Shown piece after piece: positions 11,678 to 62,758 of a DNA stretch of 64,000 bases. Source of the DNA: Lysobacter sp. yr284 (GTDB lineage: Bacteria > Pseudomonadota > Gammaproteobacteria > Xanthomonadales > Xanthomonadaceae); the NCBI RefSeq assembly GCF_900107375.1, contig NZ_FNPT01000001.1:1240001-1304000 (forward strand), written 5' to 3'. Position 1 is the first letter of the stretch; the number at the start of each line of letters is the position of its first letter. The notes below the pieces were generated by a model that ran no database searches, had not been told where the DNA came from, and saw nothing but the letters and a program-made list of their open reading frames with translations. Made by a program: the position numbers and the translations under genes.

Positions 11678-12204
11678 CCTGACACAGCCTATTCCGCGTG
11701 ACGATCGCGACTATGCGCCCTCCATCCATGCGCACCGAATTTCTTGCGACTCTCGAATGCATTTATCCGCGCATTCATAAGCCTGCATGGCAGCGCACTG
11801 GTCTATTTATAAATTTGGTGAACATCAAAGACCGCGTAGCGACACCTGCGATCACACCCTGCGATCAAATTCGTAATGCGATCTCTTTTCGCAAACAGAT
11901 GACATGGCGATCAACGCGCTCGCCAGCATCATGCTCGAGATAAAGCAGCTCCAACTTACGCTATCGACTGCGTTTGTCGTCCAAGAAAAAACGGCACTGC
12001 CGCACATGCGTGCAACCTGCCGAAGCAATACAAAGTGCACACGATAAAAAAACACGTCGCTTTAACACTGCGCCTCATACGTTCCAAAGAAACTCGCATG
12101 CCCGTATCGGGCGAACTGCGATGAACTTGTCGAAGCGGCAAAGTGTGCCGCTCGCAAAAGATCGCGCTTCATCAAGCAGCATACAGTCTTGGCTTTCAAG
12201 GACG
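11678..12204 (+). promoter_or_regulatory. Low-GC leader region upstream of the biosynthetic operon
   Basis: About 530 bp without a convincing gene, clearly poorer in GC than its neighbours, with AT-rich patches around 11800-11830 (TCTATTTATAAATTTG) and 12040-12060. The promoter of the large downstream operon should lie here, as no other gap in the operon is long enough. I cannot point to a confident -35/-10 pair; TTATAAAT near 11808 is the best -10-like element. No regulator gene is adjacent. ATGs at 11974 and 12121 are in frame with the ligase gene, so part of this region could be translated. Confidence 0.4.
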
Positions 12205-15165
12205 ATGGCATCGATGGCGGACAACTATTCTGGAAATTTGGCCGGCGCGCTGCTATGCGGCCATGTCCAACAAAAGCTGGCGGACAAGACCGCTGTTATC
12301 GGCAGTGGGGGCAATTGCAGCTACGGACAGTTGCGCCGCCGCGTTTCACGCATGGCCGGGGCCTTTCGCGCACGTGGACTTTCCAGTGGCGACACGGTCG
12401 CGCTGCTGATCGAAGACGAACTGGACTTGATCGTCGCATGGCTGGCGGTGCTATGGCAGGGCGGCGTGGCGGCGATCCTGAATTGCCAGCTCCCCGACGA
12501 TCATTATCCGCAGTACTTCGATCGCATCGACGCACGGCTGACGGTCGCTTCGCCGACGATGACGGCCCGGCTGCAGGAACGGGCCGGATCGCTATGCCGC
12601 GACTGGGTGAGCAGCCGCGATCTGGACACGGCAGCGGAAGCCGACGCCGTGGACTTTCCGGCCGCGCGAGAGGCAGATGATCCCGCTGTAATCCTGTTCA
12701 CCTCAGGGACCACCGGCCGGCCTTCGGGACTTGTGCATCGGCATGGCGATTTCGTGCTCACCAATCGAAATTACGCCGACCGCGTGATCGGCTTGGCAGA
12801 GACGGACATCGTCTATTCGCCCTCGCCGCTGTTTTTCGCGTATGGCTTGAACAGCGTACACATGGCCCTGTACCGCGGCGCGACCGCGGTATTGCCGACG
12901 CTCGACCGCTCGCGCGAAACGATCCTGCAATGCCTGCGCCGGCATCGACCGAGCGTGCTCTTCGCCGTCCCCACCGTGTACCGGCTGTTGCTGGAAAACA
13001 GCCGCCGCGAGGACCTCGCATCGCTGCGCCTGTGCGTGTCCGCGGGCGAAGCCTTGCCGCAACCGATCGCCGCGGCATGGCAGCAGACTTACGGCCATCG
13101 TATCGTCGACGGCATCGGTACCACCGAGGTTCTCAGCACCTTCATCTCGAATCGCCCGGACGACATCCGCACCGGAAGCACCGGCCGGGTCGTGCCCGGA
13201 TTCGAGCTGCGCCTGGTGGCCGACAACCACGCGGACGCCGCCGACGAGGAAGCGGGCGTGCTGTGGGTCAAGGGCGATACCCTGCCCTCGTCCTACCTCG
13301 GCGACGCCGCGGCCAGCGCCAAGCGATTTCGTGATGGCTGGTTCGTCACCAACGACCTGTTCCGGCGCGACCGCGACGGCTATTACTACTATCTGGGCCG
13401 CAGCGACGACGCGCTCAAGATCGGCGGCCAATGGATGTCGCCGATCGACCTGGAAAACCGCTTGCTCGAGCATCCGGATATCGAGCAGTGCGTGGTGGTC
13501 GCGACCGCCGACGACTGGGACCTTCCGCGCCCCTGCGCCTTCATCGTGCCGCGTCCGGGCGCGGACAAGCGCGACTGGCAGAAGGAGCTCAAGCAGTTCT
13601 GCCGCGAGCGCTTGCCGACGGCGATGTATCCGCATTTCGTCGAAACCGTAGACGATCTGCCGCGCACCTTCAGCGGCAAGTTCCAGCGCTTCCGCCTGCG
13701 CGATCGCGCCGAACAGCGGCGGCGCGATGCCGGCGCGATGCGCGGCCCGACCCTGCTGCCGCGCGAGGTGTTCGAGGAACTGATCGCCGCGGGCCACAAC
13801 CAGGTGCCGGTGCTGCGCAGCGCGCCGCTCGGCGAGCTGCGCGCCACCGACCTGCTGCGGGCCTTGCCCGGCGACGACAAATTCCTGCTCGACAGCACCC
13901 GGGTTTCGCAGGAAGGGCGCTATTCCATCCTCGGCAGCCAGCCTTTCCTGCGCTTTCGCGCCAAGGCCGATCGCTACTGGATCGACGGCCGCGAGAGCCA
14001 GGGCGATCCGATCGCGGCGTTGAAGGCGCTGCACGCCCGCTACCGTGGCCTGCGCCTGCCCGGAATGCCGCTGTTCTGCGGCGGCGCGGTCGGCTTCTTC
14101 GCCTACGAAGCCAACCATTACTTCGAGCAGCTTCCGCGCCACCCCAACGACGACGTCGAGCTGCCGGATCTGTTCTTCGACTTCATCGACAACTTCATCG
14201 TCATCGATCATCTGGAACACACGGTGATGGCGGTAGCCACCGGCGCAGACTACGACCGCGGCCTGCAGCGCCTGGACGAACTGTCCGAAGTCATCGAGAG
14301 AGCGCGCGCCGCGCCGGCGCAACCGCGGGCACCGCTGCACGAGCGGTTGGCCGAATTCAGCTCCAACTACGCGCCGGACCTCTATTGCGATGCGATCGCG
14401 CGCATCCAGGAATACATCCGCAGCGGCGATGTCTACCAGGTCAACCTGTCGCAGCGCCTGCAAGTGGACTATGCCGGCGACGGGCTGGCGTTGTACGAGG
14501 CGCTGGCCAGGATCAACCCGGTGCACTTCGCCAGCTACTTCTGCTTCGACGGCTTCCAGATCATCAGCGCTTCGCCCGAACGGCTGGTCCGGGTCGAGCG
14601 CCGCCGCGCCGTCACCCGGCCTATCGCCGGCACCCGGCGCAAGGGCAGCGACGAGGAAAACGCCCGCTTCATCGAAGAGCTGCGCACCTGCGACAAGGAG
14701 AACGCCGAGCATGCGATGCTGGTGGACCTGGAACGCAACGACCTGGGCCGGGTATGCAAGCACGGCTCGGTGCAGATCGAGAAGCTGATGGAGATCACCG
14801 AGTACACCCACGTGATCCACATCGAATCCGAAGTCGTCGGCCAGCTTGCCGACGAGGTCGACCTGCTCGACGTGGTCGGCGCGACCTTCCCCGGCGGCAC
14901 GATCACCGGGGTTCCGAAGATCCGCACCATGGAGGTCATCACCGAGCTGGAGCCGAACACGCGAGGCATCTACACCGGCTCGATCGGCTATCTCAGCTTC
15001 GCCGGCGATATGGATCTCAACATCGTCATCCGCACGGTTCTGCTGAAACAAGGGCGCGCCTATGTGCAGGTCGGCGGCGGCGTGGTGATCGACGGCGAAC
15101 CGGCGCGCGAATACAAGGAAACCTTGAACAAGGCCCGCTCGCAGTTGATGGCCCTGGCCCAATAG
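12205..15165 (+). CDS. Aryl-acid AMP-ligase fused to aminodeoxychorismate synthase component I (PabB)
   Basis: A bifunctional protein, 986 aa from the chosen start. Residues 1-505 are an ANL-family ligase of the benzoate-CoA-ligase type: P-loop [11 protein letters not shown] (165-175), GIGTTEV (303-309), YLGRSDD (396-402) and the C-terminal lysine K492 in SGKFQRF. Residues about 525-986 are a chorismate-binding domain ending with [12 protein letters not shown] and [17 protein letters not shown], like PabB. The active-site motif is RPIAGT, not PIKGT; PIAGT-type PabBs are known, including one from Stenotrophomonas. With PabA (next gene) and PabC (operon end) it should make p-aminobenzoate, which the ligase half, or a relative acting after N-oxidation, activates as AMP/CoA ester. 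I chose ATG 12205 (AAGGACG just upstream) because it gives the usual ligase N-terminus; in-frame ATGs at 11974, 12121 and 12214 are alternatives. First gene of the operon. Confidence 0.9.
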
Positions 15166-15182
15166 GACGTGGAGACGCGGAC

Positions 15183-15785
15183 ATGCTGTTGCTGATCGAC
15201 AACTTCGATTCGTTCACCTACAACCTGGTGCAGGTGCTGGGCAAGCTCGGCGCGAAGATGCGCGTGGTGCGCAACGACGCCATCGGCGCGGCCGACATCG
15301 AGGCCATGCAGCCGGACCACATCCTGATCTCGCCGGGGCCCTGCACGCCCAACGAGGCCGGGATCTCGATGGAAGTGATCCGCCGTTTCGGCGGCCGGAT
15401 TCCGATCCTGGGCGTGTGCCTGGGGCATCAGGCCATCGGCCAGGCCTACGGCGGCCGCGTGGTGCGCGCACCCGAACCGGTGCACGGCAAGACGGCCGCG
15501 ATCCACCACAACGATTCCGGGGTGTTCAGCGGCCTGCCGTCGGGATTCTCCGCCGCGCGCTACCACTCGCTGATGGTCGCGGCCGCCAGCCTGCCCGACT
15601 GCCTGGAGATCACCGCCTGGCACGACGGCATCGTGATGGGCATTCGCCACCGCGAACTGGCGGCGCTGGAAGGCGTGCAGTTCCATCCCGAATCCTTCCT
15701 CACCCCGCTCGGGTCGGATCTGCTGGCCAATTTCCTGGACTATGCGATTCCGGCAACGCAGCAGTGGCAGCGCGACGCCGCCTAG
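15183..15785 (+). CDS. pabA: Aminodeoxychorismate synthase component II, glutamine amidotransferase (PabA)
   Basis: A 200-aa class I (triad) glutamine amidotransferase. It begins [17 protein letters not shown], has the oxyanion motif [11 protein letters not shown], the nucleophile elbow [15 protein letters not shown] (Cys at about residue 80), and the His-Glu pair in QFHPES. This is the PabA/TrpG family, which supplies ammonia to PabB-type or TrpE-type partners. It lies 17 bp after the ligase-PabB gene with GGAG upstream, so the pair should be co-translated and form the ADC synthase. Its place inside a secondary-metabolite operon suggests a dedicated copy, separate from the folate-pathway enzyme. 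An anthranilate role is less likely, because an ADC-lyase-like gene (PabC) and an AurF homologue are present. Confidence 0.92.
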
Positions 15786-15873
15786 CCCGCGGCCCGGTCG
15801 CCCGCCCAGGCATCGCCGCACGCGCAGCAGCGCCGGCGATGCCTGCCTCCCCCTTCCACGCACTGGAACGCGC

Positions 15874-16830
15874 ATGAGCAAGCCCTACAAAAGCACCCAA
15901 ACGGTCTGGGACAGCCGCTCCACCGTCCGCCGGCAGCAGCGCCGCATCCTCTCGGACGGCGACATCACCGGCTATCTGTTCCCGCCCGCCATCATCCCCT
16001 TGTGCGCCGACGAGCGCGTCTTGCGCCACGGCGAGCAGTTCAAGCGCCTGCTGCTGCAGCAATGCGCCTACAAGTACATGAGCGATGTCGCCCACGTCGA
16101 AACCGAAACCATCAACCGCGTCACGCTCGAGATCGTCAATCGCCGCGACGGGCTCGACCTGCCCGAGGACATGCGCTACGACGCCTACACGATCATCATC
16201 GACGAGGCCTACCACGCCTACGTCGCCGCTGATTTCGTGCGCCAAGTGAGCCAGCGCACCGGGGTGGCGCCGATCGCCGCGCCGCTGCACAGCGAATTGA
16301 CCAAGGCGATGGAGCGGGCCAAGCAATCGCTGCCCGAGCAGATGCACCGCAACTTCGACATCGTGGCGATCTGCGTCGGCGAGAACACGCTGACCCAGGA
16401 AATGCTGGCGATCACCCGCGATGAATCGATCTGCCCCTATCTGGACGAGGTGATGAGCGACCACGTGCGCGACGAAGGCCGCCACTGCGTCTTGTTCAGC
16501 GATCTGCTCGAATGCGTATGGGCGCAACTGCCCGAGGCGCAGAAGCTGGCCATCGGCGCGCTGCTGCCGGCGTTCCTTCTGGACTACATGCGCCCCGACC
16601 TGAATATCGCCTTCTTCCGCGAGATCCTCGTCGCCCTGGGCATGGACGCCGAGGAAGCCGCCGCCGCGGTTGCCGACGCCTATCCGCCGATGAGCACCGT
16701 CGAGATCGTCGCCGTCAACCCGATCCTCGGCCATCTGATCGGCATCCTCGAACGGCGCGGCGTGTTGGCGCATCCCCCTACCCACGCCGCCTTTCTTGAG
16801 GCGGGACTGATCCAGCAGCAAGCCGCGTGA
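15874..16830 (+). CDS. AurF-like diiron p-aminobenzoate N-oxygenase
   Basis: A 318-aa protein of the AurF family of non-haem diiron N-oxygenases, which oxidise p-aminobenzoate stepwise to p-nitrobenzoate in aureothin biosynthesis. All seven expected iron ligands can be placed: E76, E111 and H114 (DEAYHA), E170 (VGEN), and H197, E201, H204 (HVRDEGRH). From memory the AurF ligands are E101, E136, H139, E196, H223, E227 and H230, so the offset is a constant 25-26 residues; this strongly supports an intact di-iron centre. The next genes to its left make p-aminobenzoate, so the substrate is very likely p-aminobenzoate, its CoA ester or a carrier-bound form. Start: ATG 15874, 88 bp after pabA. The upstream in-frame ATG at 15742 lies inside pabA and is unlikely. 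The stop overlaps the MFS start (TGATG). Confidence 0.9.
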   Translation: MSKPYKSTQTVWDSRSTVRRQQRRILSDGDITGYLFPPAIIPLCADERVLRHGEQFKRLLLQQCAYKYMSDVAHVETETINRVTLEIVNRRDGLDLPEDMRYDAYTIIIDEAYHAYVAADFVRQVSQRTGVAPIAAPLHSELTKAMERAKQSLPEQMHRNFDIVAICVGENTLTQEMLAITRDESICPYLDEVMSDHVRDEGRHCVLFSDLLECVWAQLPEAQKLAIGALLPAFLLDYMRPDLNIAFFREILVALGMDAEEAAAAVADAYPPMSTVEIVAVNPILGHLIGILERRGVLAHPPTHAAFLEAGLIQQQAA

Positions 16831-18083
16831 TGAATCCACCACGGCGCTCGCTATTGGCACTGGTCACGCTGTGCCTGACCGTATTCATCGACGCCATCGG
16901 CGGTGCGTTGATCATTCCGATGCTGGGGCCGCTGATCGTCAACGACGGCGCGGCCAATCTGGTGCCGTGGGCGGCAGCGGGCGCCCGCAACGTCTACTAC
17001 GGCGCCAGTCTGGGCCTGTTCTCGCTGGCGATGTTCCTGGCCGCGCCGACGCTGGGCGCCTGGTCCGACCGGCGCGGGCGCAAACCGGTATTGCTGTGGT
17101 GCCTGGGCGGATCGCTGGCGGGCTATTTGATCAGTGCGCTGGCCCTGCATGCCGGCTCGATCTGGCTGTTCCTGGCCGGGCGCGTGGTCAACGGACTGAG
17201 CGCAGGCAGCGTCTCGGTCGCGGTCGCCGCGCTGCTCGACGCCGGAGCTGCGCAGGACAAGCAGCGGCAAATCGGCCGGATGATGTTTTTCGTCTCCGCC
17301 GGGCAGATATTGGGGCCGTTGATCGGCGGATTGCTGTCCGCAGACGGCGGACACCGGCTGTTGCAGCCGGTCACGCCCTTGTATTTCGCCGCGGCCCTGT
17401 CGCTGTTGGGGCTGGTGCTGATGTGGCGCGGATTCGGCGACCATCGTGTTTTCAACGACAGCGCTCCGCCGGACTGGACCGCCGGATTGCGGGCCCTGGC
17501 CGATGCGTTCGCCGAACCGGCGCTGCGCTCGGTGACGGTACCGTTCTTTCTGATGCAGCTGGGCTGGGTCACTTACTTCCAGTTCCTGGCGATCTTCCTG
17601 ATCCAGCGCCTGGGCTTCGAGGAAAGGGGCGTGGGCACCTATCTGATGCTGCTCGGATTCGGTTTCGCGCTCGCCTTCGGCGCCCTGGTCGGTCCGCTGG
17701 CGCGGCGCTTCGGTCCGACCCGCCCGTTGTTCGCAGCGATGGCCGCGATGAGCGCATTGATCGCGCTGGTCGTCGCCGGTGCGCATCCGTGGCTTACCTG
17801 GGCGGCCGCCCTGCCCTGTGCGATCGCCTATGGCGTGGCCTTTTCCGGCTTGATGGCCCTGCTCGCGCGCCAGGTCGGCTCCGACCGCCAGGGCATGATC
17901 ACCGGCGTGGCCGGCGCGCTGTGCGCGTTCAGCGCCGGGGTCTCCGGCGCCGCCGGCTGGCTCGCCGGCGCGGATGTCACGCTGCCCTTGTGGACGGCCA
18001 GCGCGCTGATCGGGGCGGGGCTGCTGATCGCGCTGCTGGAGCAACGCAAGTGGACGCCGGTGCCGGAGCCGGTCGAAGCATGA
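16830..18083 (+). CDS. MFS drug exporter, Tet/DHA1-like
   Basis: A 417-aa major facilitator with about 12 hydrophobic segments. The loop 2-3 motif GAWSDRRGRKPVLL (motif A) is clear, and the first helix carries FIDAIGGALIIPMLGP, similar to TetA-type DHA1 drug/H+ antiporters. It is placed in the inner membrane and probably exports the cluster product or a toxic aryl intermediate. The ATG at 16830 overlaps the AurF-like stop by one base; a GTG at 16827 is also possible. The stop overlaps the ABC-F start (ATGA), so the two are translationally coupled, which supports a shared self-protection role. The substrate is inferred from context only. Confidence 0.88.
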   Translation: MNPPRRSLLALVTLCLTVFIDAIGGALIIPMLGPLIVNDGAANLVPWAAAGARNVYYGASLGLFSLAMFLAAPTLGAWSDRRGRKPVLLWCLGGSLAGYLISALALHAGSIWLFLAGRVVNGLSAGSVSVAVAALLDAGAAQDKQRQIGRMMFFVSAGQILGPLIGGLLSADGGHRLLQPVTPLYFAAALSLLGLVLMWRGFGDHRVFNDSAPPDWTAGLRALADAFAEPALRSVTVPFFLMQLGWVTYFQFLAIFLIQRLGFEERGVGTYLMLLGFGFALAFGALVGPLARRFGPTRPLFAAMAAMSALIALVVAGAHPWLTWAAALPCAIAYGVAFSGLMALLARQVGSDRQGMITGVAGALCAFSAGVSGAAGWLAGADVTLPLWTASALIGAGLLIALLEQRKWTPVPEPVEA

Positions 18084-19714
18084 ACTCCTACGCACCCATC
18101 GAAACCGGCTTGCCCTTGGTGGCCGCGGACGGCCTGTGCTACAGCCTGCCCGACGGCACCGAATTGCTCCAGGACCTGAGCCTGCGCATCGGCCACGAGA
18201 AGGTCGGACTGATCGGCCCGAACGGCGTCGGCAAGAGCAGCCTGCTGCGCCTGCTCAACGGCGAGTTCGAGCCTACCGCCGGCAAGGTGCGCCACAGCGG
18301 CCGCTGGGGCTATCTGCCGCAGGAGGTCGCCGCGGACGAAGCGCGCAGCGTGGCCCAGGCCCTGGGCATACAGGCCCGGCTCGCGGCCCTGGCGCGGATC
18401 GAGGCCGGCGCTTGCGATACCGCCGATTTCGACCTGGTCGGCGAAGACGGCTGGACCCTGGCCGACCGCGCTGCCGCGACCCTGGCCTCGCTGGGGCTGG
18501 CGCACATCGGCCTGGAGCGCAGCCTGGCCAGCCTCAGCGGCGGCGAGCGTACGCGCGTGGCGTTGGGCGCGCTGCTGCTGGACGCCCCGGATCTGCTGCT
18601 GCTGGACGAGCCGACCAACCATCTCGACGCGGCCACGCGCGACACCCTGTATCGCAGCATCGAAGCCTGGTCCGGGGCGATGCTGGTCGTCACCCACGAC
18701 CGCGGCCTGCTGCGCCGCGTCGACCGCATCCTGCGCCTGAGCCGCAGCGGCCTGGACAGCTACGGCGGCAACTACGACGACTACCTGGCGCTGTCCGCCG
18801 CCGAAGAAGACGCCGCCAACCGCCGCCTCAAGGACGCCGAGCGCGAACTCGGAAAGGTGCGCCGGCAGCTGCAGGAAAGCCGCGAGAAACACCAGAACCG
18901 CGAGGCCGCCGGCCGCCGCGGCCGCAGCACCGGCAGCCAGTCCAAATTGTTCTACAACGCCCAGCGCGAACGCTCCACCCGCTCCAGCGCCGGCCTGGCC
19001 GTGCAGACCGAGCGCATGCTCGATGCCGCGCAGCAGCGTCTGCAAAGCTCGCGCGCGGCGGTCGAGGAATACGAACGCATTTCGGTGCCGCGCAACGCTG
19101 CCGCGGCCGCGCAGGGCAAGATCGCGCTGGCGCTCGAAGAAGTCAGCTATACGCCGCCGGGCGCCGATCGCCCCTTGTTCGACAACCTCAACCTGAGGCT
19201 GCTCGGCACCGAGCGCGTTGCGCTCGGCGGCGCCAACGGCACCGGCAAGACCACCTTGCTGCGCATCGTCCAGGGCGAACTGGCGCCGACCGGCGGCCGC
19301 GTCGTGCGCGGCGTCAAGCACATCGCCTACCTGGAACAGATCGGCAGTTCGCTGCACGCCGGCGATACGGTGCTGGAGAGTTTCCTGCGCGCCAACCCGG
19401 CCGTCAGCGAAGGCGATGCGCGGCAGCGGCTGGCGCATTTCCTGTTCTTCGGCGATGAAGTGTTCAAGCGCATCGGCGCCCTCAGCGGCGGCGAGCGCGT
19501 GCGCGTCGGCCTGGTGCGGGTGTTGCTGGGCGATCCGGCGCCGAGCCTGCTGCTGCTGGACGAACCCACCAACCATCTCGACCTCGACGCCATCGTCAGC
19601 ATCGAGAACGCGCTGCGCAGCTACACCGGCGCGCTGCTGGTGGTCTCCCACTCCCCCGACTTTCTGCGCAACGTCGGCGTCGACCGCGAATTCTCGATGC
19701 CCGAAAGGGCGTAA
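18080..19714 (+). CDS. ABC-F family ATPase, putative ribosome-protection/self-resistance protein
   Basis: A 544-aa soluble twin-ABC protein without membrane segments, so ABC-F and not a transporter. The first Walker A is GPNGVGKSSL (K52); the second is GGANGTGKTTL. Both cassettes have LSGGER signatures followed by LLLLDEPTNHLD. Between them lies a basic, helical linker of about 80 residues (around 250-340, with KVRRQLQESREKHQNREAAGRRGR), the part that in ABC-F proteins reaches the peptidyl transferase centre. ABC-F members inside antibiotic clusters often protect the producer's ribosome; others are housekeeping translation factors (EttA, Uup). This one is in the middle of the operon and coupled to the MFS gene, so self-resistance is the better reading, and it hints that the product may act on the 50S subunit. 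This target is inference. Confidence 0.9.
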   Translation: MNSYAPIETGLPLVAADGLCYSLPDGTELLQDLSLRIGHEKVGLIGPNGVGKSSLLRLLNGEFEPTAGKVRHSGRWGYLPQEVAADEARSVAQALGIQARLAALARIEAGACDTADFDLVGEDGWTLADRAAATLASLGLAHIGLERSLASLSGGERTRVALGALLLDAPDLLLLDEPTNHLDAATRDTLYRSIEAWSGAMLVVTHDRGLLRRVDRILRLSRSGLDSYGGNYDDYLALSAAEEDAANRRLKDAERELGKVRRQLQESREKHQNREAAGRRGRSTGSQSKLFYNAQRERSTRSSAGLAVQTERMLDAAQQRLQSSRAAVEEYERISVPRNAAAAAQGKIALALEEVSYTPPGADRPLFDNLNLRLLGTERVALGGANGTGKTTLLRIVQGELAPTGGRVVRGVKHIAYLEQIGSSLHAGDTVLESFLRANPAVSEGDARQRLAHFLFFGDEVFKRIGALSGGERVRVGLVRVLLGDPAPSLLLLDEPTNHLDLDAIVSIENALRSYTGALLVVSHSPDFLRNVGVDREFSMPERA

Positions 19715-19732
19715 ATCCACTGAAGGACCGTC

Positions 19733-20314
19733 ATGATCCTGCAACCGGAACGTTCGCTGCTGATTCTCTCCAACATCCAAGACGATCTCGTGCCGATCCT
19801 GCACGAAGGCGAGCGCGTGGTGAGTTACTGCGCATGGCTGGCCGGCGTGGCGCGCGAGTTCGACGTTCCGATCCTGCTCATGGAGCACAAGCGGCTGGGC
19901 GCCACGATGCCGGAAATCAAGCGCCTGACCGAGGGCGCGCCCAGCACCGAGATCGTCAGCTTCTCCTACCTGACCGATCCCAAGACCCGCTCCAGCATCC
20001 TCGACAGCGGCCGCGACCAGATCGTCCTGGCCGGCACCGAGACCCACATCAGCATCCTGCAGAGCGCCGCCGACGCGATCGACGCCGGGCTTCGCGCCTA
20101 TGTCGTCGGCGAGGCCTGCTCCACGCGCGACGTGGTGGACCACGCGGCGGCGCTCAAGCGCCTGCCGCAGCTGGGGGCGCAGGTGGTGACGCGCGAGATG
20201 GTGTTCTTCGAATGGCTGCCCTCGTCGGAGCACCCGCGTTATCGCGACATGAGCCTGCGCTTCGTCAAGCATCCCACCCCGCCGGATGCGGCGGCGATCG
20301 CGGCGGCGAGCTGA
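19733..20314 (+). CDS. Isochorismatase-fold hydrolase with degenerate catalytic triad
   Basis: A 193-aa protein of the isochorismatase-like cysteine-hydrolase superfamily, YcaC-like by its GTETHISILQSA and GLRAYVVGEACSTR blocks. The usual Asp-Lys-Cys triad seems lost. LIDxQ reads LSNIQ (Asn14 for Asp), the position of the Lys before the F-S motif is Ile74 (EIVSFS), and the nucleophile of THVCVLQ is Ser107 (THISILQ). A bulk hydrolase activity is therefore doubtful. It might be a pseudoenzyme, a binding or scaffold protein, or use Ser. The start has AAGGA eight bases upstream. It lies 18 bp after the ABC-F gene and 9 bp before the FAD-enzyme gene, so it is a true operon member. In the cluster context, handling of isochorismate or chorismate-derived compounds was considered, but the missing residues speak against it. 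Confidence 0.8.
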   Translation: MILQPERSLLILSNIQDDLVPILHEGERVVSYCAWLAGVAREFDVPILLMEHKRLGATMPEIKRLTEGAPSTEIVSFSYLTDPKTRSSILDSGRDQIVLAGTETHISILQSAADAIDAGLRAYVVGEACSTRDVVDHAAALKRLPQLGAQVVTREMVFFEWLPSSEHPRYRDMSLRFVKHPTPPDAAAIAAAS

Positions 20315-20323
20315 GGAGAGAGC

Positions 20324-21706: not shown

Positions 21707-21751
21707 CCCGGCCGCTCCCGCCCGCGTCCTTCCAGCCCTGACGCCTGTGCC

Positions 21752-29112
<7,361 letters not shown>

Positions 29113-29116
<4 letters not shown>

Positions 29117-56700: not shown

Positions 56701-59327
56701 CGCTCAGCCTGGGGCGCAGCCATTTCGGCCAGCGGCTGGCGTTTGTGGCCTGCGATCTGGGCGACTTGCGCGCCGCGCTCAAGCAGTGCCTGCAACAGGG
56801 CCTGGAAGACGAGCGCATGTTCGCCGGTCCGCGCGCCGAACACAGTCCGCGCGCCGAGCGGGCGCAGGCGCAGCAATACCTGGCCGGGGAAACGCCGCAG
56901 TGGCAGGAACAGTTCGCCGGCGCGCACGCGGTATCGCTGCCGTGCTATCCATTCGCGCGCGACCGTTTCTGGGCCGCGGGCGCGCAAGCGCCGGCGCAGC
57001 CGGCCGCGGCGCAAGACAACGATCCGGCGATGTCCGAACTGCTCGCGCCGCTGGCCGGGCTGGCGGCGCGCGGCGGCGTCCTGCAGGCGCACCGCGCCGC
57101 ATTCGACGCGCTGGAGGCGTTCGGCGCGGCGCGCACCCGCGAGGCGCTGCAGAACCTGGATGCGCTGCCGCGCCCGGACGAATCCGCCGTGCCCGTTCGC
57201 GTGCTGATGCAGCGCGCCGGCGTGGTGGCCGGACAGGCGCGCCTGTTCACGGCGCTGCTCGCCATCCTGGCCCGGCATGGCGAGCTATCGCGCAACGAGC
57301 ATGGCTACAGCGCCGCCGCGACCGCGCCCGAGAGCAGCGATGAACAGGCCGCCGCCGACGCCGCGGCGCTGGCTGCGCGCTATCCGATCGTGGCGCCGCA
57401 CCTGGAATTGCTGCGCGCCTGCGTGCGCAGCTATGCGGACCTGCTGAGCGGGCGTATCGGCGGCCCGCAGGTCTTGTTTCCGGGCGGCTCGACGACGCTG
57501 GTGGAAGGCATCTACCGCGGCAACGAAATCACCGACCACTACAACGAGATAGTGGCGCAGGTCTGCCGGGGCTGGTGCCGCGACCGCAGCCCGCGAATGA
57601 TCGAAATCGGCGCCGGCACCGGCGCCACCAGCGCCGCGGTGCTGGCCGCACTGCCGGACCCGCCGGCACGTTACGACTACACCGACCTGTCCGCGCATTT
57701 CCTGCGCCACGGCGAACGGCGCTTCGGCGCGAATCGCCCATGGCTGCATTTCCGCGCGCTCGACATCGAGCGGGCGCCGGCGCAACAGGGCTTCGATGAG
57801 GCCGGCTACGACCTGGCGCTGGCCACCAACGTCCTGCACGCCACCCGCGACATCGCAGCCACGCTCACCCATGTACGCAGCCTGCTGCGCCCGGGCGGGC
57901 TGCTGGTGATCAACGAAATCATGCAGCGCCAGGACATCGCCACGATGACCTTCGGCCTGACCGAGGGCTGGTGGCGCTATGGCGATGCCGAGCGCCGGAT
58001 CGAGGACTCGCCCCTGCTCGAGCATGCGCGCTGGCGCGAGTTGCTCGCCGAAGCCGGTTTCTCCGCCATCGCCGAAGCCGTGCCGGGCGAAGGCACGCCG
58101 GCGTCGCGGGTACTGGTCGCACGCGCCCGGACTGCGGCCGCAGCCGCGGTCGAAGCGGCCGAACCGATCGCCGACCCGCGCTCGCGGCAACGCGTCGCCG
58201 CGGTTGCGCGCGTCGATCGCCCGAAACCCGACGCCGTCGCGCAGGCGCGCGGCGATGTCTGGCGCTCGCTGTGCGAGGTCCTGGCGCGGGTGCTGAAGAT
58301 CGCCGCGTCGCGGCTCGATCCGTCGACGCGGCTGGCCGAGCTCGGGATCGATTCGCTGGTCAGCCTGGAGCTGACCGATGCGCTGGCGCAGACGATCGCG
58401 CCGCTGCGCGAGCACGCCCTGCTCGATTGCGCCACGCTCGGCGATCTGGAGCGCATGCTGCGCGCGGCGCAGGCCCCGGCCGCGGCGCCGCGGGCGGCCG
58501 ACGCGGTCGCGGCGGCCGCCCGGGCCGAGCCGATCCGCCCCGCATGGTCGGCGCAACGGGTGGAACACGGCGCCACCCACGTGGAGAGCTTCAGCGCCGG
58601 CGACGGCGAGCCCGTCCTGCTGCTCGGCCCGCTCAACCTGCATGCGCGCGCCTGGCACCACCAATTCGCCGCGTTGCAGTCGCGCTATCGCGTCATCGCC
58701 CTGCACCCCCCGGGTCGCGACGCCACCCGCCCGGTCGCGGCGAACGCGGATTTCCGCATCGACGCGGAAATCCTGCTGGACGCGATCGACGCCCTGCTTC
58801 CCAAAGGCGAACGCTTCCATTGCGTCGGCTGGTCGCTGGGCGGTTGCTATGGGCAACTGATCGCCGCGCACCATCCGCAGCGGCTGCGCAGCCTGGTCCT
58901 GGTCAACTGCGCCGCCCACTTCGACGCGGACGCCGAACCGGTCGCCACCGCGTTGCGCGAAGAGCTCAGCGAGGACCCCGACGATCCGGGCGCCGCGCTG
59001 CGGTTGAGCGCGTTGAGCTGCGGGCTGGATGCGCAATCCCTGCGCGCCTTTCAGCGCAGTCTGGCCGACTTCGACGCGCGCCCGCTGCACCCGGCCATCG
59101 CGACGCCGACCCTGCAGATCATCGGCGCGCGCGACCGCGTCCTGGCGCCCGAACGCCAGGACCTGCGCGGCATCGCCTCGCTGCGCGTGCGGCGCATGGA
59201 GCTCGCCGGCCATCTCGCGCCCCTGACCCATGCCGAGGAATTCAATCGCGTCCTCGCCGAATTCCTCGAACATCACTCCGCGCAAACGGCGAGCGCCGTC
59301 CTGCGTCGCCAAGGATCTCCGCTATGA
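53751..59327 (+). CDS. Trans-AT polyketide synthase, terminal protein: MT-ACP-KS-MT-ACP-TE
   Basis: An 1858-aa protein that ends the assembly line. A C-methyltransferase (GAGTG at 187-190, NVVHAT and LNE catalytic blocks) and ACP (S424) complete module 8. Module 9 has KS8 (C673), a second MT (G1287 in EIGAGTG) and ACP (S1535), with no KR or DH, so a beta-keto-alpha-methyl thioester is expected. The final 250 residues are an alpha/beta-hydrolase thioesterase with GWSLGG (S1695), an acidic residue in IGARDRV and His in LAGHLAP; it should release the chain by hydrolysis or lactonisation. ATG 53751 is chosen because it overlaps the previous stop (ATGA) and gives the same helical MT N-terminus as the split point before it; a far longer open frame upstream in this phase overlaps the previous gene. 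The stop overlaps the AT start (ATGA). Confidence 0.94.
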   Translation: MNLSDSPYSPADALDAYARACAMRVLLALGAPVAAGELWHPQRLAAQIGVLPAWQRLWRSTLDAARIGGYLQAQADMLATTERASALARQDAQQSRQALLERYPMLAPHAEMLERCCAAYADVVGARQDGVNVLFPSGSPELVRALYHGNPAVDACNEAVARTVAALVAAKREQAPGTVVRVIELGAGTGATTNVVLEHLGAQRDDLEYHITDLSPSLVAAAQRRYGARYPYVRCRVLDIEADSAAERADAHLIVASNVVHATRRIQATLGRIKRMLADDGLIVLNEVVAASDFATLVFGLTPGWWLYEDEDVRLRGGPLLDLAHWRSEFAQCGFDPVEAIGDSAGDARQQVLIAASDGRACVAGAFSPAVEPAPALPPQPVAQAAPAAAQTVARLSAVIADALRMQAEQIDADAPFVELGIDSIMAMDAIERINRSFALQLRPADLFGHPSVRRLAAHLDAQNPTATTAVAPQTADTAPAPEPEPAWAAPQPAQAVVAAPLRYDSELPEPIAIIGMAGRFPGADDVESFWRNLVHGHDAIAEMPAQRRQGMTQVAAEVNLRGGFMRDVDAFDAAFFQVPERAAEMMDPQQRLLLEQSWAAFEDAAYPLQRLNGSRCGVFVGCFPGDYKSRLSAGAAAPHPYLLTGTSEAMLAGRVAFFFDLKGPAISIDTACSSSLVALHTAAESLRSGGCDLALVAGVTVLSTPQFHVLAHAARMTSPDGQCRTFDAGANGFVPGEAVGVVVLKRLSAALADNDRIRAVVLASGLNQDGASNGITAPNASAQTDLISDVYRRHRIDPATLGYVEAHGTGTALGDPIEFGALSDAFARLSSGRPAARSQYCALGSVKTNIGHCLPAAGIAGLIKTALCVERGLLVPSLNFDAPNPHLSLQDSPFYLNSETRAWPDAGPRTAAISAFGFSGTNAHVVIQQPPPRAPAPPGDPALPWLLPLSAKDRPALLRRVRELEREIGGHRHDLALRDVAYTLSLGRSHFGQRLAFVACDLGDLRAALKQCLQQGLEDERMFAGPRAEHSPRAERAQAQQYLAGETPQWQEQFAGAHAVSLPCYPFARDRFWAAGAQAPAQPAAAQDNDPAMSELLAPLAGLAARGGVLQAHRAAFDALEAFGAARTREALQNLDALPRPDESAVPVRVLMQRAGVVAGQARLFTALLAILARHGELSRNEHGYSAAATAPESSDEQAAADAAALAARYPIVAPHLELLRACVRSYADLLSGRIGGPQVLFPGGSTTLVEGIYRGNEITDHYNEIVAQVCRGWCRDRSPRMIEIGAGTGATSAAVLAALPDPPARYDYTDLSAHFLRHGERRFGANRPWLHFRALDIERAPAQQGFDEAGYDLALATNVLHATRDIAATLTHVRSLLRPGGLLVINEIMQRQDIATMTFGLTEGWWRYGDAERRIEDSPLLEHARWRELLAEAGFSAIAEAVPGEGTPASRVLVARARTAAAAAVEAAEPIADPRSRQRVAAVARVDRPKPDAVAQARGDVWRSLCEVLARVLKIAASRLDPSTRLAELGIDSLVSLELTDALAQTIAPLREHALLDCATLGDLERMLRAAQAPAAAPRAADAVAAAARAEPIRPAWSAQRVEHGATHVESFSAGDGEPVLLLGPLNLHARAWHHQFAALQSRYRVIALHPPGRDATRPVAANADFRIDAEILLDAIDALLPKGERFHCVGWSLGGCYGQLIAAHHPQRLRSLVLVNCAAHFDADAEPVATALREELSEDPDDPGAALRLSALSCGLDAQSLRAFQRSLADFDARPLHPAIATPTLQIIGARDRVLAPERQDLRGIASLRVRRMELAGHLAPLTHAEEFNRVLAEFLEHHSAQTASAVLRRQGSPL

Positions 59328-60163
59328 TCGTTTACATGTTCCCCGGCCAGGGATCGCAGCATCCGGGCATGGGCAAGGAATTGTTCGAGTCCTATCCCGA
59401 GTACGTCGAAAAGGCCGACGAGGTCCTCGGCCATTCGCTGGCCGAGTTGTGCCTGCAAGAGTCCGACCCGCGCCTGAACCGCACCGAGTTCACGCAACCT
59501 GCCTTGTTCGCGGTCAACGTGCTGTCCTACCTGCGCCGGATCGAGGACAGCGGCCGCTTCCCCGACTGGGTCGTGGGCCACAGCCTCGGCGAGTACAACG
59601 CGCTGTTCGCGGCCGGCGTCTTCGACTTCGAAACCGGACTGCGCCTGGTGCAGCGCCGCGGCCAACTGATGTCCCAGGCCAGCGGCGGCGGCATGGCGGC
59701 GGTGATCGGTCTGCCGGCCGATGAAGTCCTCTCGCGCCTGCGCGCGGCCGGCCTGGACGGCATCGACATCGCCAACCACAACGCGCCGCGGCAAATCGTC
59801 ATCGCCGGCCCGAGCGACGACATCGACCGCGCCGCCGAGTTGTTCCAAAGCCCGACGCGCTGTGTCCGGCTGCGCGTCAGCGGCGCGTTCCATTCCCGGC
59901 AGATGCGCGCGCCGCGCGACGCGTTCGGCGATTTCGTGCGCACGCAGAGGTTGCGGGCGCCGCGCCTGCCGGTGATCGCCAATGCCACCGCGCAGCCCTA
60001 CAGCGACGAACGGCTGGCCGAGACCCTGGTCGAACAGATTGCCAGCCCGGTGCGCTGGACCGAGATCCTCGACTACCTCAAGCACCGCGGCGCGCAGGAA
60101 TTCGTCGAGATCGGGCCTGGCACCGTGCTCACCAATCTGCTGCGCGAACACGCCGCCGCGTGA
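59324..60163 (+). CDS. Trans-acting malonyl-CoA acyltransferase
   Basis: A 279-aa FabD-like acyltransferase. It begins VYMFPGQGSQHPGMG, has the nucleophile motif GHSLGEY (S87), the catalytic His in GAFHS, and QRRGQLM, in which R112 aligns with the malonate-binding Arg117 of E. coli FabD. It should therefore load malonyl units from CoA onto all the ACPs of the AT-less PKS. It is shorter than many stand-alone ATs (about 300-320 aa) but ends properly with IGPGTVLTNLL. The start overlaps the PKS stop (ATGA), and its stop overlaps the next start (GTGA), so dosage is tied to the synthase. Nothing points to a methylmalonyl preference, and methyl groups are explained by the four MT domains. Confidence 0.93.
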   Translation: MIVYMFPGQGSQHPGMGKELFESYPEYVEKADEVLGHSLAELCLQESDPRLNRTEFTQPALFAVNVLSYLRRIEDSGRFPDWVVGHSLGEYNALFAAGVFDFETGLRLVQRRGQLMSQASGGGMAAVIGLPADEVLSRLRAAGLDGIDIANHNAPRQIVIAGPSDDIDRAAELFQSPTRCVRLRVSGAFHSRQMRAPRDAFGDFVRTQRLRAPRLPVIANATAQPYSDERLAETLVEQIASPVRWTEILDYLKHRGAQEFVEIGPGTVLTNLLREHAAA

Positions 60164-61872
60164 GCGCAGGCACGCCACGCAGCTGGCTGCATCCGATCAG
60201 CCTGAGCAAGGACGGTCTGACCGGACGGGCCGCCTTGTGCCTGAGCGAAGCCGATCCCGCGCAGGCGGCGATGCCGCAATCGCCGCACTGCGATCTGCTG
60301 CACGACAACGAACGCAGGCGCCTGGACGAGATGCGTTTCGAGCGCCGCCGCGACAGCTATTGGCTCGGGCGCTGCTGCGCCAAACGCGCGCTCGCGGCGA
60401 TCCGCGACATAGCGCCGCAGCGGATCGAGATCGCCAGCGGCGTCTGGGGCCAGCCGATCGTGGTCGGCGAGGTGCCCGGCCAGCCGGTCCAGGTCAGCAT
60501 CAGCCACAGCGCCGCGATCGGCGCGGCGGTCGCGTTCGACGCGGCGTTTCCGATGGGCGTGGATGTGGAATCCCCGGATTCGGTAGCGCGCCTGGACCCG
60601 GCGCGCTGGAGCTGCGAGGAAGAGCGCCGGCAATGGCTTTCGGGCGACGACGCCCTTCTGCCGGCCCTGCTGTGGAGCGCCAAGGAAGCGGTCGCCAAAG
60701 TGCTGCATTCGGGTTTGAGCGCGCCGCCGGAATTGCTGCGGATCGAACGGTTGCGCGAGGACGCCGGCCTGTGGCGCTACGGCTTTCGCCACTTGCCCCA
60801 TGTCGAAGGCCTGACCCTGCCCCACCAAGGCCAGGTGCTGTCGCTGGCGTTCCCCAAGGACAGCCTGGATGTCGGGCAAATACGCGGCTTGTCGGGCCTG
60901 GCCAAGGCAGGCGACAGACCGCGGGTGGTGTTCATGTTCTCCGGGCAGGGTTCGCAGTACTACCAAATGGGGCGCGAACTGTTCGAGCACGATCCGATCT
61001 TCGCCGAACACATGCGCCATGGCGCGCGAACGCTCGAACGCCTGTCCGGAGTCGATCTGCTGCAAGTGATCTACGCCGGCGGGCGCCCCAAGACCGAACC
61101 CTTCGTCGAACTCGGCCATACCCACCCGGCCCTGTTCCTGATCCAGTACGCACTGGCCCGGACCCTGCTCGACAAAGGCGTCCGGCCGGACCTGTTGCTC
61201 GGCGCGAGCCTGGGCGAATTCGTCGCCATCGCCGTCGCCGAGGCGGTGCCGTTCGAGCAGGCCGCAGGCATGGTGCTCGAACACGCACGGCTGGTCGCCG
61301 AGCACAGCCCGCGCGGGGCGATGATCGCGGTGCTGGCATCGCCGGAGCTGTATCGCAGCGAGCCGCGTCTGCACCGCCTGTGCGAACTGGCCGGCGAGAA
61401 CTTCGATCGCCACTTCGTGATCGCGCTGCCGTTGGATACCCGGCTCGAGGTCAAGCGGATACTGGCCGAACATGGCGTCAGCCACCAAGAACTGCCGGTA
61501 CAGTACGCATTCCACTCATCGCAGATGGACCGGGTCTGCAGCGAATACGCCCTGCGCATGGCCGGCGTCGCGCCGCGCCCGCCGCGTTGGCCGGTCCTGT
61601 CCTGCGCCAGCGGCGCTTATCTCGGCGGCGACCTGACCGATCACCTCGCCCGCCTCGCGCGCGCGCCGATCGACTTCCGCGCGACCGTGCAGCGCCTGCT
61701 GTCGCAAGGCGATTGCCTGCTGCTCGATCTCGGCCCCAGCGGCACGCTGGCCACCCATGCCCGCTACGGCCATGCGACCGACGCCGGATTCAAGGCGGTC
61801 AGCGCAATGACCCCTTTCGGCAACGACGTGTACACCCTCAATCAGACCCTGGATGCATTCGCCGCGCTTTAG
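60160..61872 (+). CDS. Phosphopantetheinyl transferase fused to an acyl-hydrolase-like AT domain
   Basis: A 570-aa two-domain protein with a GTG start. Residues 1-235 are a Sfp-type 4'-phosphopantetheinyl transferase: GVDVES (133-138) and WSAKEAVAKVL (172-182), the Mg-binding and catalytic motifs, are intact; it should activate the ACP/PCP domains. Residues about 255-570 have an acyltransferase fold starting with VVFMFSGQGSQYYQMG, with GASLGEF (S350) and FHSSQM. In this half the Arg that binds the malonyl carboxylate is replaced by H375 (EHARLV, where ATs have RRGxLM), and GHS is GAS. These changes are typical of PedC-like acyl hydrolases, which clear stalled acyl chains from ACPs in trans-AT systems. 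A PPTase-acyl hydrolase fusion is unusual. An acyltransferase for another, non-malonyl unit such as the aryl starter is an alternative. Confidence 0.88.
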   Translation: MSAGTPRSWLHPISLSKDGLTGRAALCLSEADPAQAAMPQSPHCDLLHDNERRRLDEMRFERRRDSYWLGRCCAKRALAAIRDIAPQRIEIASGVWGQPIVVGEVPGQPVQVSISHSAAIGAAVAFDAAFPMGVDVESPDSVARLDPARWSCEEERRQWLSGDDALLPALLWSAKEAVAKVLHSGLSAPPELLRIERLREDAGLWRYGFRHLPHVEGLTLPHQGQVLSLAFPKDSLDVGQIRGLSGLAKAGDRPRVVFMFSGQGSQYYQMGRELFEHDPIFAEHMRHGARTLERLSGVDLLQVIYAGGRPKTEPFVELGHTHPALFLIQYALARTLLDKGVRPDLLLGASLGEFVAIAVAEAVPFEQAAGMVLEHARLVAEHSPRGAMIAVLASPELYRSEPRLHRLCELAGENFDRHFVIALPLDTRLEVKRILAEHGVSHQELPVQYAFHSSQMDRVCSEYALRMAGVAPRPPRWPVLSCASGAYLGGDLTDHLARLARAPIDFRATVQRLLSQGDCLLLDLGPSGTLATHARYGHATDAGFKAVSAMTPFGNDVYTLNQTLDAFAAL

Positions 61873-61969
61873 GCGGTAATCGAAGCTGCCGGCGCGGGCG
61901 CCCCGGCGCTGCGCCCCGGCTGCGCTGCGGCGCTCCGGTAGTTCGACTTCACCACAGGAGACAGGCGGG

Positions 61970-62758
61970 ATGGCCGTTTGGTGCAATGGCGCAATCGCAA
62001 GCGAGACGTTGATCATCGATCCCAGCGATCGCGGCTTTACCCTGGGCGACGGCATATTCGAGACGATCAAATGGTCGGACGGCCACGCACGGTGGCTGGA
62101 TCGCCATTTCATGCGGCTGCGCGCCTCCGCCGAGTTTCTGGCGATCCCCTTGCATTGGAGCGATGCGCAACTGGGCGATGCGATCGCCGCCGTCGTACGG
62201 GCCGAAGGCCTGGACGCGGCGGCGGTCCGCCTGACCTTGACTCGCGGACCGGCACCGCGCGGCATCCTGCCGCCGGCGAATCCGCGCCCCACCGTCGTCG
62301 TCACCGCCGGACCGCTGCCGCCGCTCAAGCCCGTCACGGCGATCATCGCGACGCAAGTAAGACGCAACGAGCACTCCATGCTGTCGCGGATCAAGTCGCT
62401 TTGCTACGCCGACAACATCCTGGCCAGCCGGGAGGCGGCGGACAAAGGCGCCGACCAGGCGTTGCTGTTGAATACGGCGGGCAGAATCGCGGAGGCCGCG
62501 ATAGCCAATCTGTTCATCCGGCATGGAAACGATTTGATAACCCCGCCCTTGTCCGAAGGGGCGTTGCCTGGCGTCATGCGCGGCGTATTGATGGACAACT
62601 GCCGCGTGATCGAACGCAGCATTACGCCGCAGATGCTGACCGACGCAGAATACGCGTTCCTCAGCAGCAGCATCGGCTTGCGCTTGCTGACCCATGTCGA
62701 TGGCGCGCGATTGAGCGAGAATCCGCACGTGCTGCAACCGTTCGCCGAGTGGAGCTAA
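61970..62758 (+). CDS. pabC: Aminodeoxychorismate lyase-like class IV aminotransferase (PabC)
   Basis: A 262-aa PLP enzyme of fold type IV. K142 in SRIKSLCYADN is the expected Schiff-base lysine; GFTLGDGIFET near residue 22 and GRIAEAAIANLF (E175) are the other family blocks. In context it is most likely 4-amino-4-deoxychorismate lyase, releasing pyruvate to give p-aminobenzoate from the product of the PabA/PabB pair at the other end of the operon. Branched-chain or D-amino-acid aminotransferase is possible from fold alone. A gap of 97 bp separates it from the PPTase-AT gene, and AGGAG precedes its ATG, so it has its own translation start; it might have its own promoter, but it lies on the same strand. 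A hairpin (62764-62781) follows the stop. Confidence 0.85.
   Translation: MAVWCNGAIASETLIIDPSDRGFTLGDGIFETIKWSDGHARWLDRHFMRLRASAEFLAIPLHWSDAQLGDAIAAVVRAEGLDAAAVRLTLTRGPAPRGILPPANPRPTVVVTAGPLPPLKPVTAIIATQVRRNEHSMLSRIKSLCYADNILASREAADKGADQALLLNTAGRIAEAAIANLFIRHGNDLITPPLSEGALPGVMRGVLMDNCRVIERSITPQMLTDAEYAFLSSSIGLRLLTHVDGARLSENPHVLQPFAEWS

What the first reader, a model, noticed from the sequence alone, without database searches (positions are those of the whole stretch)
12205..62758. Hybrid NRPS/trans-AT PKS operon with an aryl-nitrogen starter pathway
One plus-strand operon of about 50 kb combines p-aminobenzoate synthesis (PabA, PabB, PabC), an aryl-acid ligase, an AurF-type N-oxygenase, a Gly-activating NRPS module and eight AT-less KS modules. 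AurF-type nitrobenzoate starters are known from cis-AT actinomycete PKSs (aureothin, spectinabilin); I do not recall one joined to a trans-AT line in a proteobacterium. The expected product is an N-(p-nitro- or p-aminobenzoyl)-glycyl polyene/polyol.
Basis: partly seen in the sequence, partly recalled or inferred. Interest (0 to 1): 0.93.

Follow-up and report, generated by a model that had tools for sequence, protein, structure and literature searches.

The report
Aryl-capped lankacidin-like antibiotic gene cluster
A bacterium carries one long operon that looks able to make a ring-shaped antibiotic of the lankacidin kind, with an unusual p-aminobenzoate-derived cap and a straight eight-step assembly line where its known relatives reuse a short one.

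Summary
The operon is real (12121-62758, plus strand): benzoate-CoA-ligase-like/PabB fusion, PabA, AurF-family oxygenase, MFS, ABC-F, isochorismatase-like hydrolase, FAD oxidase, C-A-PCP (Gly-like code), eight KS, two discrete ATs, PPTase, PabC. The eight modules in order fit the lankacidin skeleton in 23 of 24 domain positions (KR of module 5 missing; 8 of 40,320 module orders do as well). All seven complete LkcE clusters compared have a compact five-KS, one-MT layout without PabA, PabB, PabC or AurF. KS2/KS5, KS3/KS6 and KS4/KS7 are sister pairs, so modules 5-7 look like a duplicate of 2-4. But six of eight window KS are not specially close to lankacidin KS in a wider tree, so descent from that line is unproven. 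Best reading: a collinear line making an N-(4-amino- or N-oxidised-benzoyl) lankacidin-type 17-membered carbocycle, probably ribosome-targeting. N-oxidation of the aryl amine is the weakest step: the AurF relative is distant and its nearest kin sit near NRPS genes.

The parts
12121..15165 (+). One ORF: benzoate-CoA-ligase-like domain (about 12205-13830) fused to a PabB-type aminodeoxychorismate synthase component I domain
   Evidence: start codon is a choice (12121 or 12205)
15183..15785 (+). PabA-type glutamine amidotransferase
15874..16830 (+). AurF-family diiron oxygenase; the seven ligand positions (recalled) kept
16830..18083 (+). MFS exporter
18080..19714 (+). ABC-F protein near the ribosomal-protection model (366 bits, just under its cut-off of 380)
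19733..20314 (+). Isochorismatase-like hydrolase, LkcH homologue (38-39% to the two Streptomyces LkcH)
20324..21706 (+). FAD amine oxidase, LkcE-type amide oxidase/macrocyclase
21752..29116 (+). PKS1: C-A(Gly-like)-PCP-KS1-DH1-KR1
29113..53754 (+). PKS2 (8213 aa): MT1-ACP1 | KS2-DH2-KR2-ACP2 | KS3-KR3-ACP3 | KS4-DH4-KR4-MT4-ACP4 | KS5-DH5-ACP5 | KS6-KR6-ACP6 | KS7-KR7
53751..59327 (+). PKS3: MT7-ACP7 | KS8-MT8-ACP8-TE
59324..60163 (+). Discrete AT1, FabD-type (314 bits, cut-off 260.9)
60160..61872 (+). 4'-phosphopantetheinyl transferase fused to a second AT-like domain (GASLGE)
61970..62758 (+). PabC-like aminodeoxychorismate lyase (aminotransferase class IV family)
   Evidence: below every NCBIfam cut-off
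9856..10758 (+). AraC-type regulator upstream, possible cluster regulator (inference from place only)

Best explanation
The operon encodes a collinear, eight-module trans-AT PKS that builds a lankacidin-type chain on N-arylglycine. (1) PabA/PabB/PabC make 4-aminobenzoate (inferred). (2) The ligase activates it, probably as the CoA thioester (inferred; no free carrier protein was found). (3) The C domain joins it to glycine on the PCP (inferred from C-A-PCP and the pocket letters). (4) The AurF-family enzyme oxidises the aryl amine before or after this step (least sure). (5) Eight modules extend glycine by eight acetates; C-methylation in modules 1, 4, 7, 8, dehydration in 1, 2, 4, 5, hydroxyls from 3, 6, 7, ketone from 8, which is the lankacidin pattern. 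(6) TE releases the chain, probably as the beta-keto-delta-lactone. (7) The LkcE-type oxidase oxidises the arylamide C-N bond and closes the carbocycle by a Mannich reaction. (8) ABC-F and MFS protect the producer. Shown: gene content, domain order, active-site residues, clade of the oxidase, sister pairing of the KS copies. The product and every reaction are inferred.
For: LkcE: phmmer 306 bits over residues 4-434, next PDB match at E 1e-4; E64, R326 and T397 kept, all three of which the 15 generic relatives in the alignment lack (25 of the 80 loci were put in); in the LkcE clade at 100/100. Y182 is F here, but Y182F LkcE stayed active (PMC6162330 passages). LkcH: the two best-ranked of 48 plasmid records are the two lankacidin plasmids. 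Order of modules: 23 of 24 positions; 8 of 40,320 orders and 20 of 400,000 label shuffles do as well (lankacidin alkene and methyl positions partly recalled). A-domain pocket letters DILQLGLVW against DILQLGMIW in LkcA (read by eye with recalled numbering). PabB: FPGGTITG and YTGSIG as in 7pi1, named aminodeoxychorismate synthase, not FPAGT as in the TrpE matches; the genome has four other chorismate-binding genes, which I read as one TrpE, two PIKGT-type PabB and one unassigned. ABC-F 366 bits fits a ribosome drug.
Against: Module 5 has DH but no KR. The oxidase is 33-41% like the other LkcE-clade members, whereas PMC6162330 reports 54-100% to LkcE for homologues in lankacidin clusters, and one clade member sits in a phenazine cluster, so clade alone does not prove macrocyclisation. 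In the wider tree only KS2/KS5 stay next to a lankacidin KS. No discrete carrier protein for the aryl unit was found in the window, frames down to 45 codons. PabB and PabC score below every equivalog cut-off shown, and PabB has PIAGT, not PIKGT. The AurF relative is distant and of NRPS-linked type.
Confidence: 0.62

Rival explanations
1. The same aryl-Gly-octaketide is made, but the FAD oxidase does another oxidation and the product stays an open polyene/polyol or a lactone.
For: Oxidase identity to LkcE is only 36%; H65 is L and Y168, Y178, Y182 are F; an LkcE-clade enzyme occurs in a phenazine/NRPS locus on an E. coli plasmid.
Against: E64, which PMC6162330 reports as essential and, to its authors' knowledge, without counterpart in other MAO members, is kept with R326; LkcH, ABC-F and module order all point the same way.
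Confidence: 0.2
2. The AurF-family enzyme does not make p-nitrobenzoate: it oxidises an amine bound to the carrier protein (glycine or the aryl amine on the chain), giving a hydroxylamine, oxime or N-hydroxy amide.
For: Four of the five nearer kin examined lie within two genes of NRPS or adenylation domains: L097, L139, L140, L141. HamC, an AurF homologue, is reported to oxidise NRPS-tethered valine (PMC11659414 passages), and Alb2 of althiomycin is proposed to form an oxime (PMC3445576 passages). NCBIfam AurF model 34 bits, cut-off 620.
Against: It lies between pabA and the transporter in an operon that also has pabB, pabC and an aryl-CoA ligase, so an aryl amine is the natural substrate. One kin, L142, has no NRPS gene annotated near it.
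Confidence: 0.4
3. PabB-like/PabA make anthranilate, not 4-aminobenzoate, and the class IV enzyme is an amino acid transaminase; the cap is 2-aminobenzoyl.
For: Best NCBIfam model of the PabB domain is trpE_most (425.5 bits, cut-off 517.7) and of PabC a branched-chain transaminase subfamily (124 bits, cut-off 363); PIAGT instead of PIKGT.
Against: The best PDB match, 7pi1, is named aminodeoxychorismate synthase and also has PIAGT; the FPGGTITG...YTGSIG...NIVIRT stretch is of its type, not of TrpE type. The class IV gene is in the same operon.
Confidence: 0.13
4. The collinear line was assembled independently from common trans-AT modules (convergence) and shares only the LkcE/LkcH tailoring cassette with lankacidin clusters, as against a lankacidin-type iterative line that was unrolled by duplication.
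For: In the 90-row tree KS1, KS3/6, KS4/7 and KS8 have no lankacidin KS as nearest group; the best lankacidin-family KS ranks 17th to 35th by BLAST score for the eight window KS. A domain: the 15 best-ranked of 104 plasmid records are not the lankacidin plasmids.
Against: KS2/KS5 stay sister to the LkcC-type KS (SH-aLRT 94); the repeated unit KR-MT-ACP, KS-DH-KR-ACP, KS-KR-ACP, KS equals LkcC+LkcF.
Confidence: 0.5

Closest known systems
Lankacidin cluster (lkc, Streptomyces; S. griseofuscus pSGRIFU1 L013, Streptomyces NBC_01224 L014)
   Same: LkcE, LkcH, ABC-F, MFS, discrete AT, C-A(Gly)-PCP starter, C-terminal TE, module chemistry
   Different: L013 has five KS-like domains (PMC6162330 counts four) and one MT for eight cycles, a lactoyl/pyruvoyl starter and pqq genes beside it; window has eight KS, four MT and pab/ligase/AurF genes; none of the window ORFs scanned was a pqq gene
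Chejuenolide-type cluster (Hahella; HN01 contig, L024, L111-L113)
   Same: LkcE-type oxidase, LkcH, AT, compact trans-AT line; chejuenolides have the lankacidin carbon frame (PMC9881209 passages)
   Different: Acetamide instead of aryl amide (PMC9881209 passages); compact line; no strong ABC-F match in the 60 kb taken
Aureothin/spectinabilin (AurF, cis-AT; recalled)
   Same: 4-aminobenzoate pathway with an AurF-family enzyme
   Different: There the aryl starter loads a cis-AT PKS; here it should meet an NRPS C domain and a trans-AT line; AurF relative is distant
Fragin/valdiazen HamC-type N-oxygenases
   Same: Nearest AurF kin found have an NRPS neighbourhood like HamC (that L139 is the ham locus is a guess; its record is unannotated)
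   Different: HamC oxidises a tethered amino acid; no pab genes are described there

Membership tests
Lankacidin/chejuenolide-type clusters | LkcE-type oxidase with E64 and R326 | tested here: met
Lankacidin/chejuenolide-type clusters | LkcH-like hydrolase in the cluster | tested here: met
Lankacidin/chejuenolide-type clusters | Glycine C-A-PCP starter module, trans-acting AT, TE at the end | tested here: met
   glycine by recalled code, not by assay
Lankacidin/chejuenolide-type clusters | Module chemistry of the skeleton (eight cycles, four methyls) | tested here: met
   23 of 24 positions; KR of module 5 missing
Lankacidin/chejuenolide-type clusters | Compact reused PKS with five KS and one MT | tested here: not met
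   seven of seven complete relatives have it, window does not
Lankacidin/chejuenolide-type clusters | KS sequences nearest to lankacidin KS | tested here: not met
   only KS2/KS5 keep that neighbour, six of eight do not
Lankacidin/chejuenolide-type clusters | 17-membered carbocycle as product | not testable with these tools
   needs isolation
AurF 4-aminobenzoate N-oxygenase | Seven diiron ligands (positions recalled) | tested here: met
   six lie in the aligned part with AurF, the first Glu is placed by alignment among 12 kin only
AurF 4-aminobenzoate N-oxygenase | Score above the NCBIfam AurF cut-off | tested here: not met
   34 bits, cut-off 620
AurF 4-aminobenzoate N-oxygenase | Six-electron oxidation of free 4-aminobenzoate | not testable with these tools
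   needs enzyme assay
Aminodeoxychorismate synthase (PabB) | PabB-type C-terminal stretch ([14 protein letters not shown]) | tested here: met
   against 7pi1
Aminodeoxychorismate synthase (PabB) | Catalytic Lys in PIKGT | tested here: inconclusive
   PIAGT here, as in 7pi1, PIKGT in two other genes of the genome
trans-AT PKS | KS modules without cis AT, discrete AT gene | tested here: met

The most novel reading that the evidence does not exclude
A natural experiment on iteration: a lankacidin-type PKS block that its relatives use twice has been physically duplicated into a collinear eight-module line (modules 5-7 copied from 2-4, each copy then specialised: module 7 without DH, module 5 without KR), and the freed starter site took up a new p-aminobenzoate/N-oxygenase cap, giving aryl lankacidins.
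Probability: 0.35. Interest if true: 0.87.

Novelty: new variant of a known kind. Interest (0 to 1): 0.7.

Why it matters
Programmed reuse of modules in trans-AT PKS is poorly understood (so stated in PMC10921412, passages, which lists lankacidin). A collinear line with the same predicted read-out lets one assign each lankacidin cycle to a module, fits the model in which LkcC and LkcF act more than once (PMC6162330 Fig. 1 legend), and gives stand-alone modules to assay. An aryl, possibly nitroaryl, amide on a lankacidin-type core would be a new side chain next to a probable ribosomal self-protection gene.

Tried and rejected
Structure of the AurF-like protein (single sequence): mean pLDDT 42.7, pTM 0.36, so no fold search was made from it. 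The 'lankacidin C' entries in a Lysobacter and a Pseudomonas paper are redox-cofactor (pqq) regions (PMC9410377 and PMC8704066 passages), so I do not take them for this cluster. The claim that the whole line descends from a lankacidin PKS looked strong in a tree of window and lankacidin-type KS only (KS2/5 with C type 92/89, KS3/6 with F1 type 96/90, KS8 with G type 99/99; treekit warned of long branches meeting at KS8) but did not survive the control with 66 KS from ten other PKS regions (picked as best hits; trans-AT by appearance, not tested); I dropped it to a possibility. In that control 23 of 113 rows (three Legionella clusters, one Streptomyces, the rumen MAG) were left out to shorten the run, and the quick method gives no bootstrap. 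AU tests on the first tree reject KS3 or KS6 alone with the F1 type (p 0.007, 0.008), KS7 alone with F2+A (0.031) and KS4+KS7 with F2 alone (0.030), but not clearly KS2 (0.113), KS5 (0.052) and KS4 (0.058); the test of KS1 with the A type did not finish. Against a plain copy of modules 2-4: DH5 is nearest to DH4 (31%), not DH2, and MT4 nearest to MT8 (49%), not MT7 (compared with Hahella, S. griseofuscus and one Legionella only). Non-extending KS as an explanation for modules 5/6: rejected, all eight KS have C-H-H. Promoter scan: none found. Taxon: not named by any tool; high GC and a 6.25 Mb genome made me think of Lysobacter (guess). In 19 genus mates the best match to the oxidase is 34% (E 2.6e-55); I did not place those in the tree.
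Full report
What is there. Thirteen genes on the + strand, 12121-62758, nearly without gaps: ligase-PabB fusion, PabA, AurF-family oxygenase, MFS, ABC-F, isochorismatase-like hydrolase, FAD oxidase, PKS1, PKS2 (8213 aa), PKS3, AT1, PPTase-AT2, PabC.

The oxidase. Against the PDB sequences its matches are LkcE (three sequences, 304-306 bits, E about 1e-90) and then eight others at E 1e-4 or weaker. LkcE oxidises an N-acylglycine-derived amide and closes the lankacidin ring by a Mannich reaction (PMC6162330, passages and section 7). E64, R326 and T397 are kept; the 15 generic relatives put in the alignment lack all three. Y182 is F, but the paper's Y182F enzyme was active. The window protein lies in the LkcE clade at 100/100 among 29 rows, made from 25 of the 80 loci plus four others. 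Against this: identity to other clade members is 33-41%, and the clade includes one enzyme from a phenazine locus. The hydrolase next to it resembles LkcH; the two best-ranked of 48 plasmid records are the two lankacidin plasmids.

Relatives. One scan of genome contigs (84,980 species) with an LkcE alignment, limited to two peptide patterns, gave 339 relatives, of which 80 loci were kept. With window proteins as probes, lankacidin-type neighbours were seen in Streptomyces, Hahella, four Legionella genomes and three MAGs. I mapped domains in ten clusters besides the window: seven complete (Hahella, four Legionella, two Streptomyces) and three cut by contig ends (Alpha393/L015, L016, Rumen394/L051). 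All seven complete ones have five KS and one MT. Of the eleven stretches mapped, only the window matched AurF, PabA, PabB or PabC. AurF-family matches over the cut-off were found in 1 of 10 genomes or records searched (S. longispororuber, on contigs other than its lkcE contig). The window's AurF protein itself matched 2 of 369 genomes of the class and 8 of 395 of the family, own genome included in both; the other matches there are at most 31% identical.

The assembly line. Window: C-A-PCP | KS1-DH-KR-MT-ACP | KS2-DH-KR-ACP | KS3-KR-ACP | KS4-DH-KR-MT-ACP | KS5-DH-ACP | KS6-KR-ACP | KS7-KR-MT-ACP | KS8-MT-ACP-TE. Lankacidin needs eight cycles (PMC6162330 legend). Its frame, with C18-C17 from glycine, asks for C16-methyl and C16=C17 (module 1), C14=C15 (2), C13-OH (3), C10-methyl and C10=C11 (4), C8=C9 (5), C7-OH (6), C4-methyl and C5-O (7), C2-methyl and C3 ketone (8). 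C2-methyl, C4/C5 in the lactone ring, C7, C13, C18, C16=C17 and the word tetraene are in the passages read; the other positions are recalled. The window line fits 23 of 24 yes/no domain positions; the miss is KR in module 5. Of 40,320 orders of the same modules 8 do as well; of 400,000 shuffles of MT, DH and KR labels 20 do. These tests take the recalled skeleton as given.

Duplication. In a tree of 47 KS, eight from the window and 39 from nine lankacidin-type clusters, KS2+KS5 (96/92), KS3+KS6 (99/97) and KS4+KS7 (98/97) are sister pairs. With 66 KS of ten other PKS regions added and 23 lankacidin-type rows left out, the pairs stay (87, 97, 99; SH-aLRT). ACP2/ACP5 and KR3/KR6 are each other's best match, and KR4's best match is KR7, whose own best is KR1; against a plain copy, DH5 is nearest to DH4 and MT4 to MT8. 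So modules 5-7 look like a copy of 2-4 at least in the KS. The unit KR-MT-ACP, KS-DH-KR-ACP, KS-KR-ACP, KS is the domain content of LkcC plus LkcF, which the model in PMC6162330 uses more than once. But in the wider tree only KS2/KS5 remain beside a lankacidin KS (LkcC type, 94); the other six do not. Descent from an iterative lankacidin line is therefore possible, not shown; independent assembly with a shared LkcE/LkcH cassette is the rival.

The cap. The ligase domain is nearest to benzoate-CoA ligases in the PDB (303 bits) and passes the NCBIfam benzoate-CoA ligase subfamily cut-off (386.6 against 375.25). The PabB domain has the aminodeoxychorismate-synthase type stretch but scores under the equivalog cut-offs shown. 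The genome has four other chorismate-binding genes, of which I read one as TrpE and two as PIKGT-type PabB, one unassigned, so this set is probably extra. The C domain has HHAISDG, whereas in the six compact clusters with that stretch aligned it reads SHxxxDG; Leg388 has its C domain split over two frames and gave no motif. The A-domain pocket letters match the glycine code (recalled) and LkcA. In lankacidin the cap is lactoyl or pyruvoyl, in chejuenolide acetyl; here an arylacyl cap is inferred. No free carrier protein was found in 578 frames of 45 codons or more.

The N-oxygenase. PF11583 62.6 bits (cut-off 29.6), NCBIfam AurF 34 bits (cut-off 620). The seven ligands, recalled from AurF, are kept. 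Of 8 plasmid records matched I looked at four: two have an annotated NRPS gene within two genes (L140, L141), one (B. cenocepacia, stretch unannotated) has an adenylation domain next to it, one (S. europaeiscabiei) has none annotated near. The G048 relative also lies beside two NRPS genes. Seven more distant kin of the family search (L127-L133) were aligned but their neighbours were not looked at. HamC and Alb2, AurF homologues, are placed on NRPS-bound amines. So the enzyme may act on the tethered aryl amine, or on glycine; p-nitrobenzoate is one option among these.

Self-protection. Of the seven complete relatives, seven have an MFS match over 100 bits and six an ABC-F match over 200 bits; Hahella has ABC-F at 39 bits only. 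Chejuenolides are reported without antibiotic activity (PMC9030710 passages), which would agree. The window's ABC-F scores 366 bits, just under the cut-off of 380. This fits a ribosome-binding product, as lankacidin is (recalled).

Literature. The rows listed by searches (30 of 138; 25 of 210; 15 of 25) show no report of a lankacidin-type cluster with a 4-aminobenzoate pathway or of an eight-KS LkcE cluster. The library holds open-access papers only; the original lankacidin iteration and chejuenolide cluster papers were seen only as references.

Verdict. A new variant of the lankacidin kind, by mechanism: likely an aryl-capped lankacidin-type carbocycle from a collinear line.

Noticed in passing
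L012 15686-17098 (NZ_CP076707.1, E. coli plasmid): An LkcE-clade FAD oxidase (47% to LkcE, E64 and R326 kept) lies inside a phenazine plus NRPS gene set on an IncFIB plasmid.
   Followed up: partly
L017, L020, L021, L022 and L114-L123: Four Legionella genomes carry complete compact lankacidin/chejuenolide-type clusters with ABC-F and MFS.
   Followed up: partly
L051 and L125: A roe deer rumen alphaproteobacterial MAG carries a partial compact LkcE cluster; its oxidase has D in place of E64 and a stop in the stretch read.
   Followed up: partly
L015 and L016: Nearly identical LkcE loci occur in a MAG labelled Alphaproteobacteria and one labelled Flavobacteriales, so one is probably mis-binned; both are cut upstream, with ABC-F, LkcH, LkcE in the window's gene order.
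   Followed up: partly
window 12121-15165: Natural fusion of a benzoate-CoA-ligase-like domain with PabB in one ORF.
   Followed up: partly
window 60160-61872: PPTase fused to an AT-like domain with GASLGE instead of GHSLGE; may be an acyl hydrolase.
   Followed up: no
L138 4578-14231, minus strand (just downstream of the window): A 3217-residue open frame with no Pfam match at E 1e-5.
   Followed up: no
H56, NZ_LR134421.1 8034-8573: LkcH-like hydrolase on a Legionella adelaidensis plasmid.
   Followed up: no
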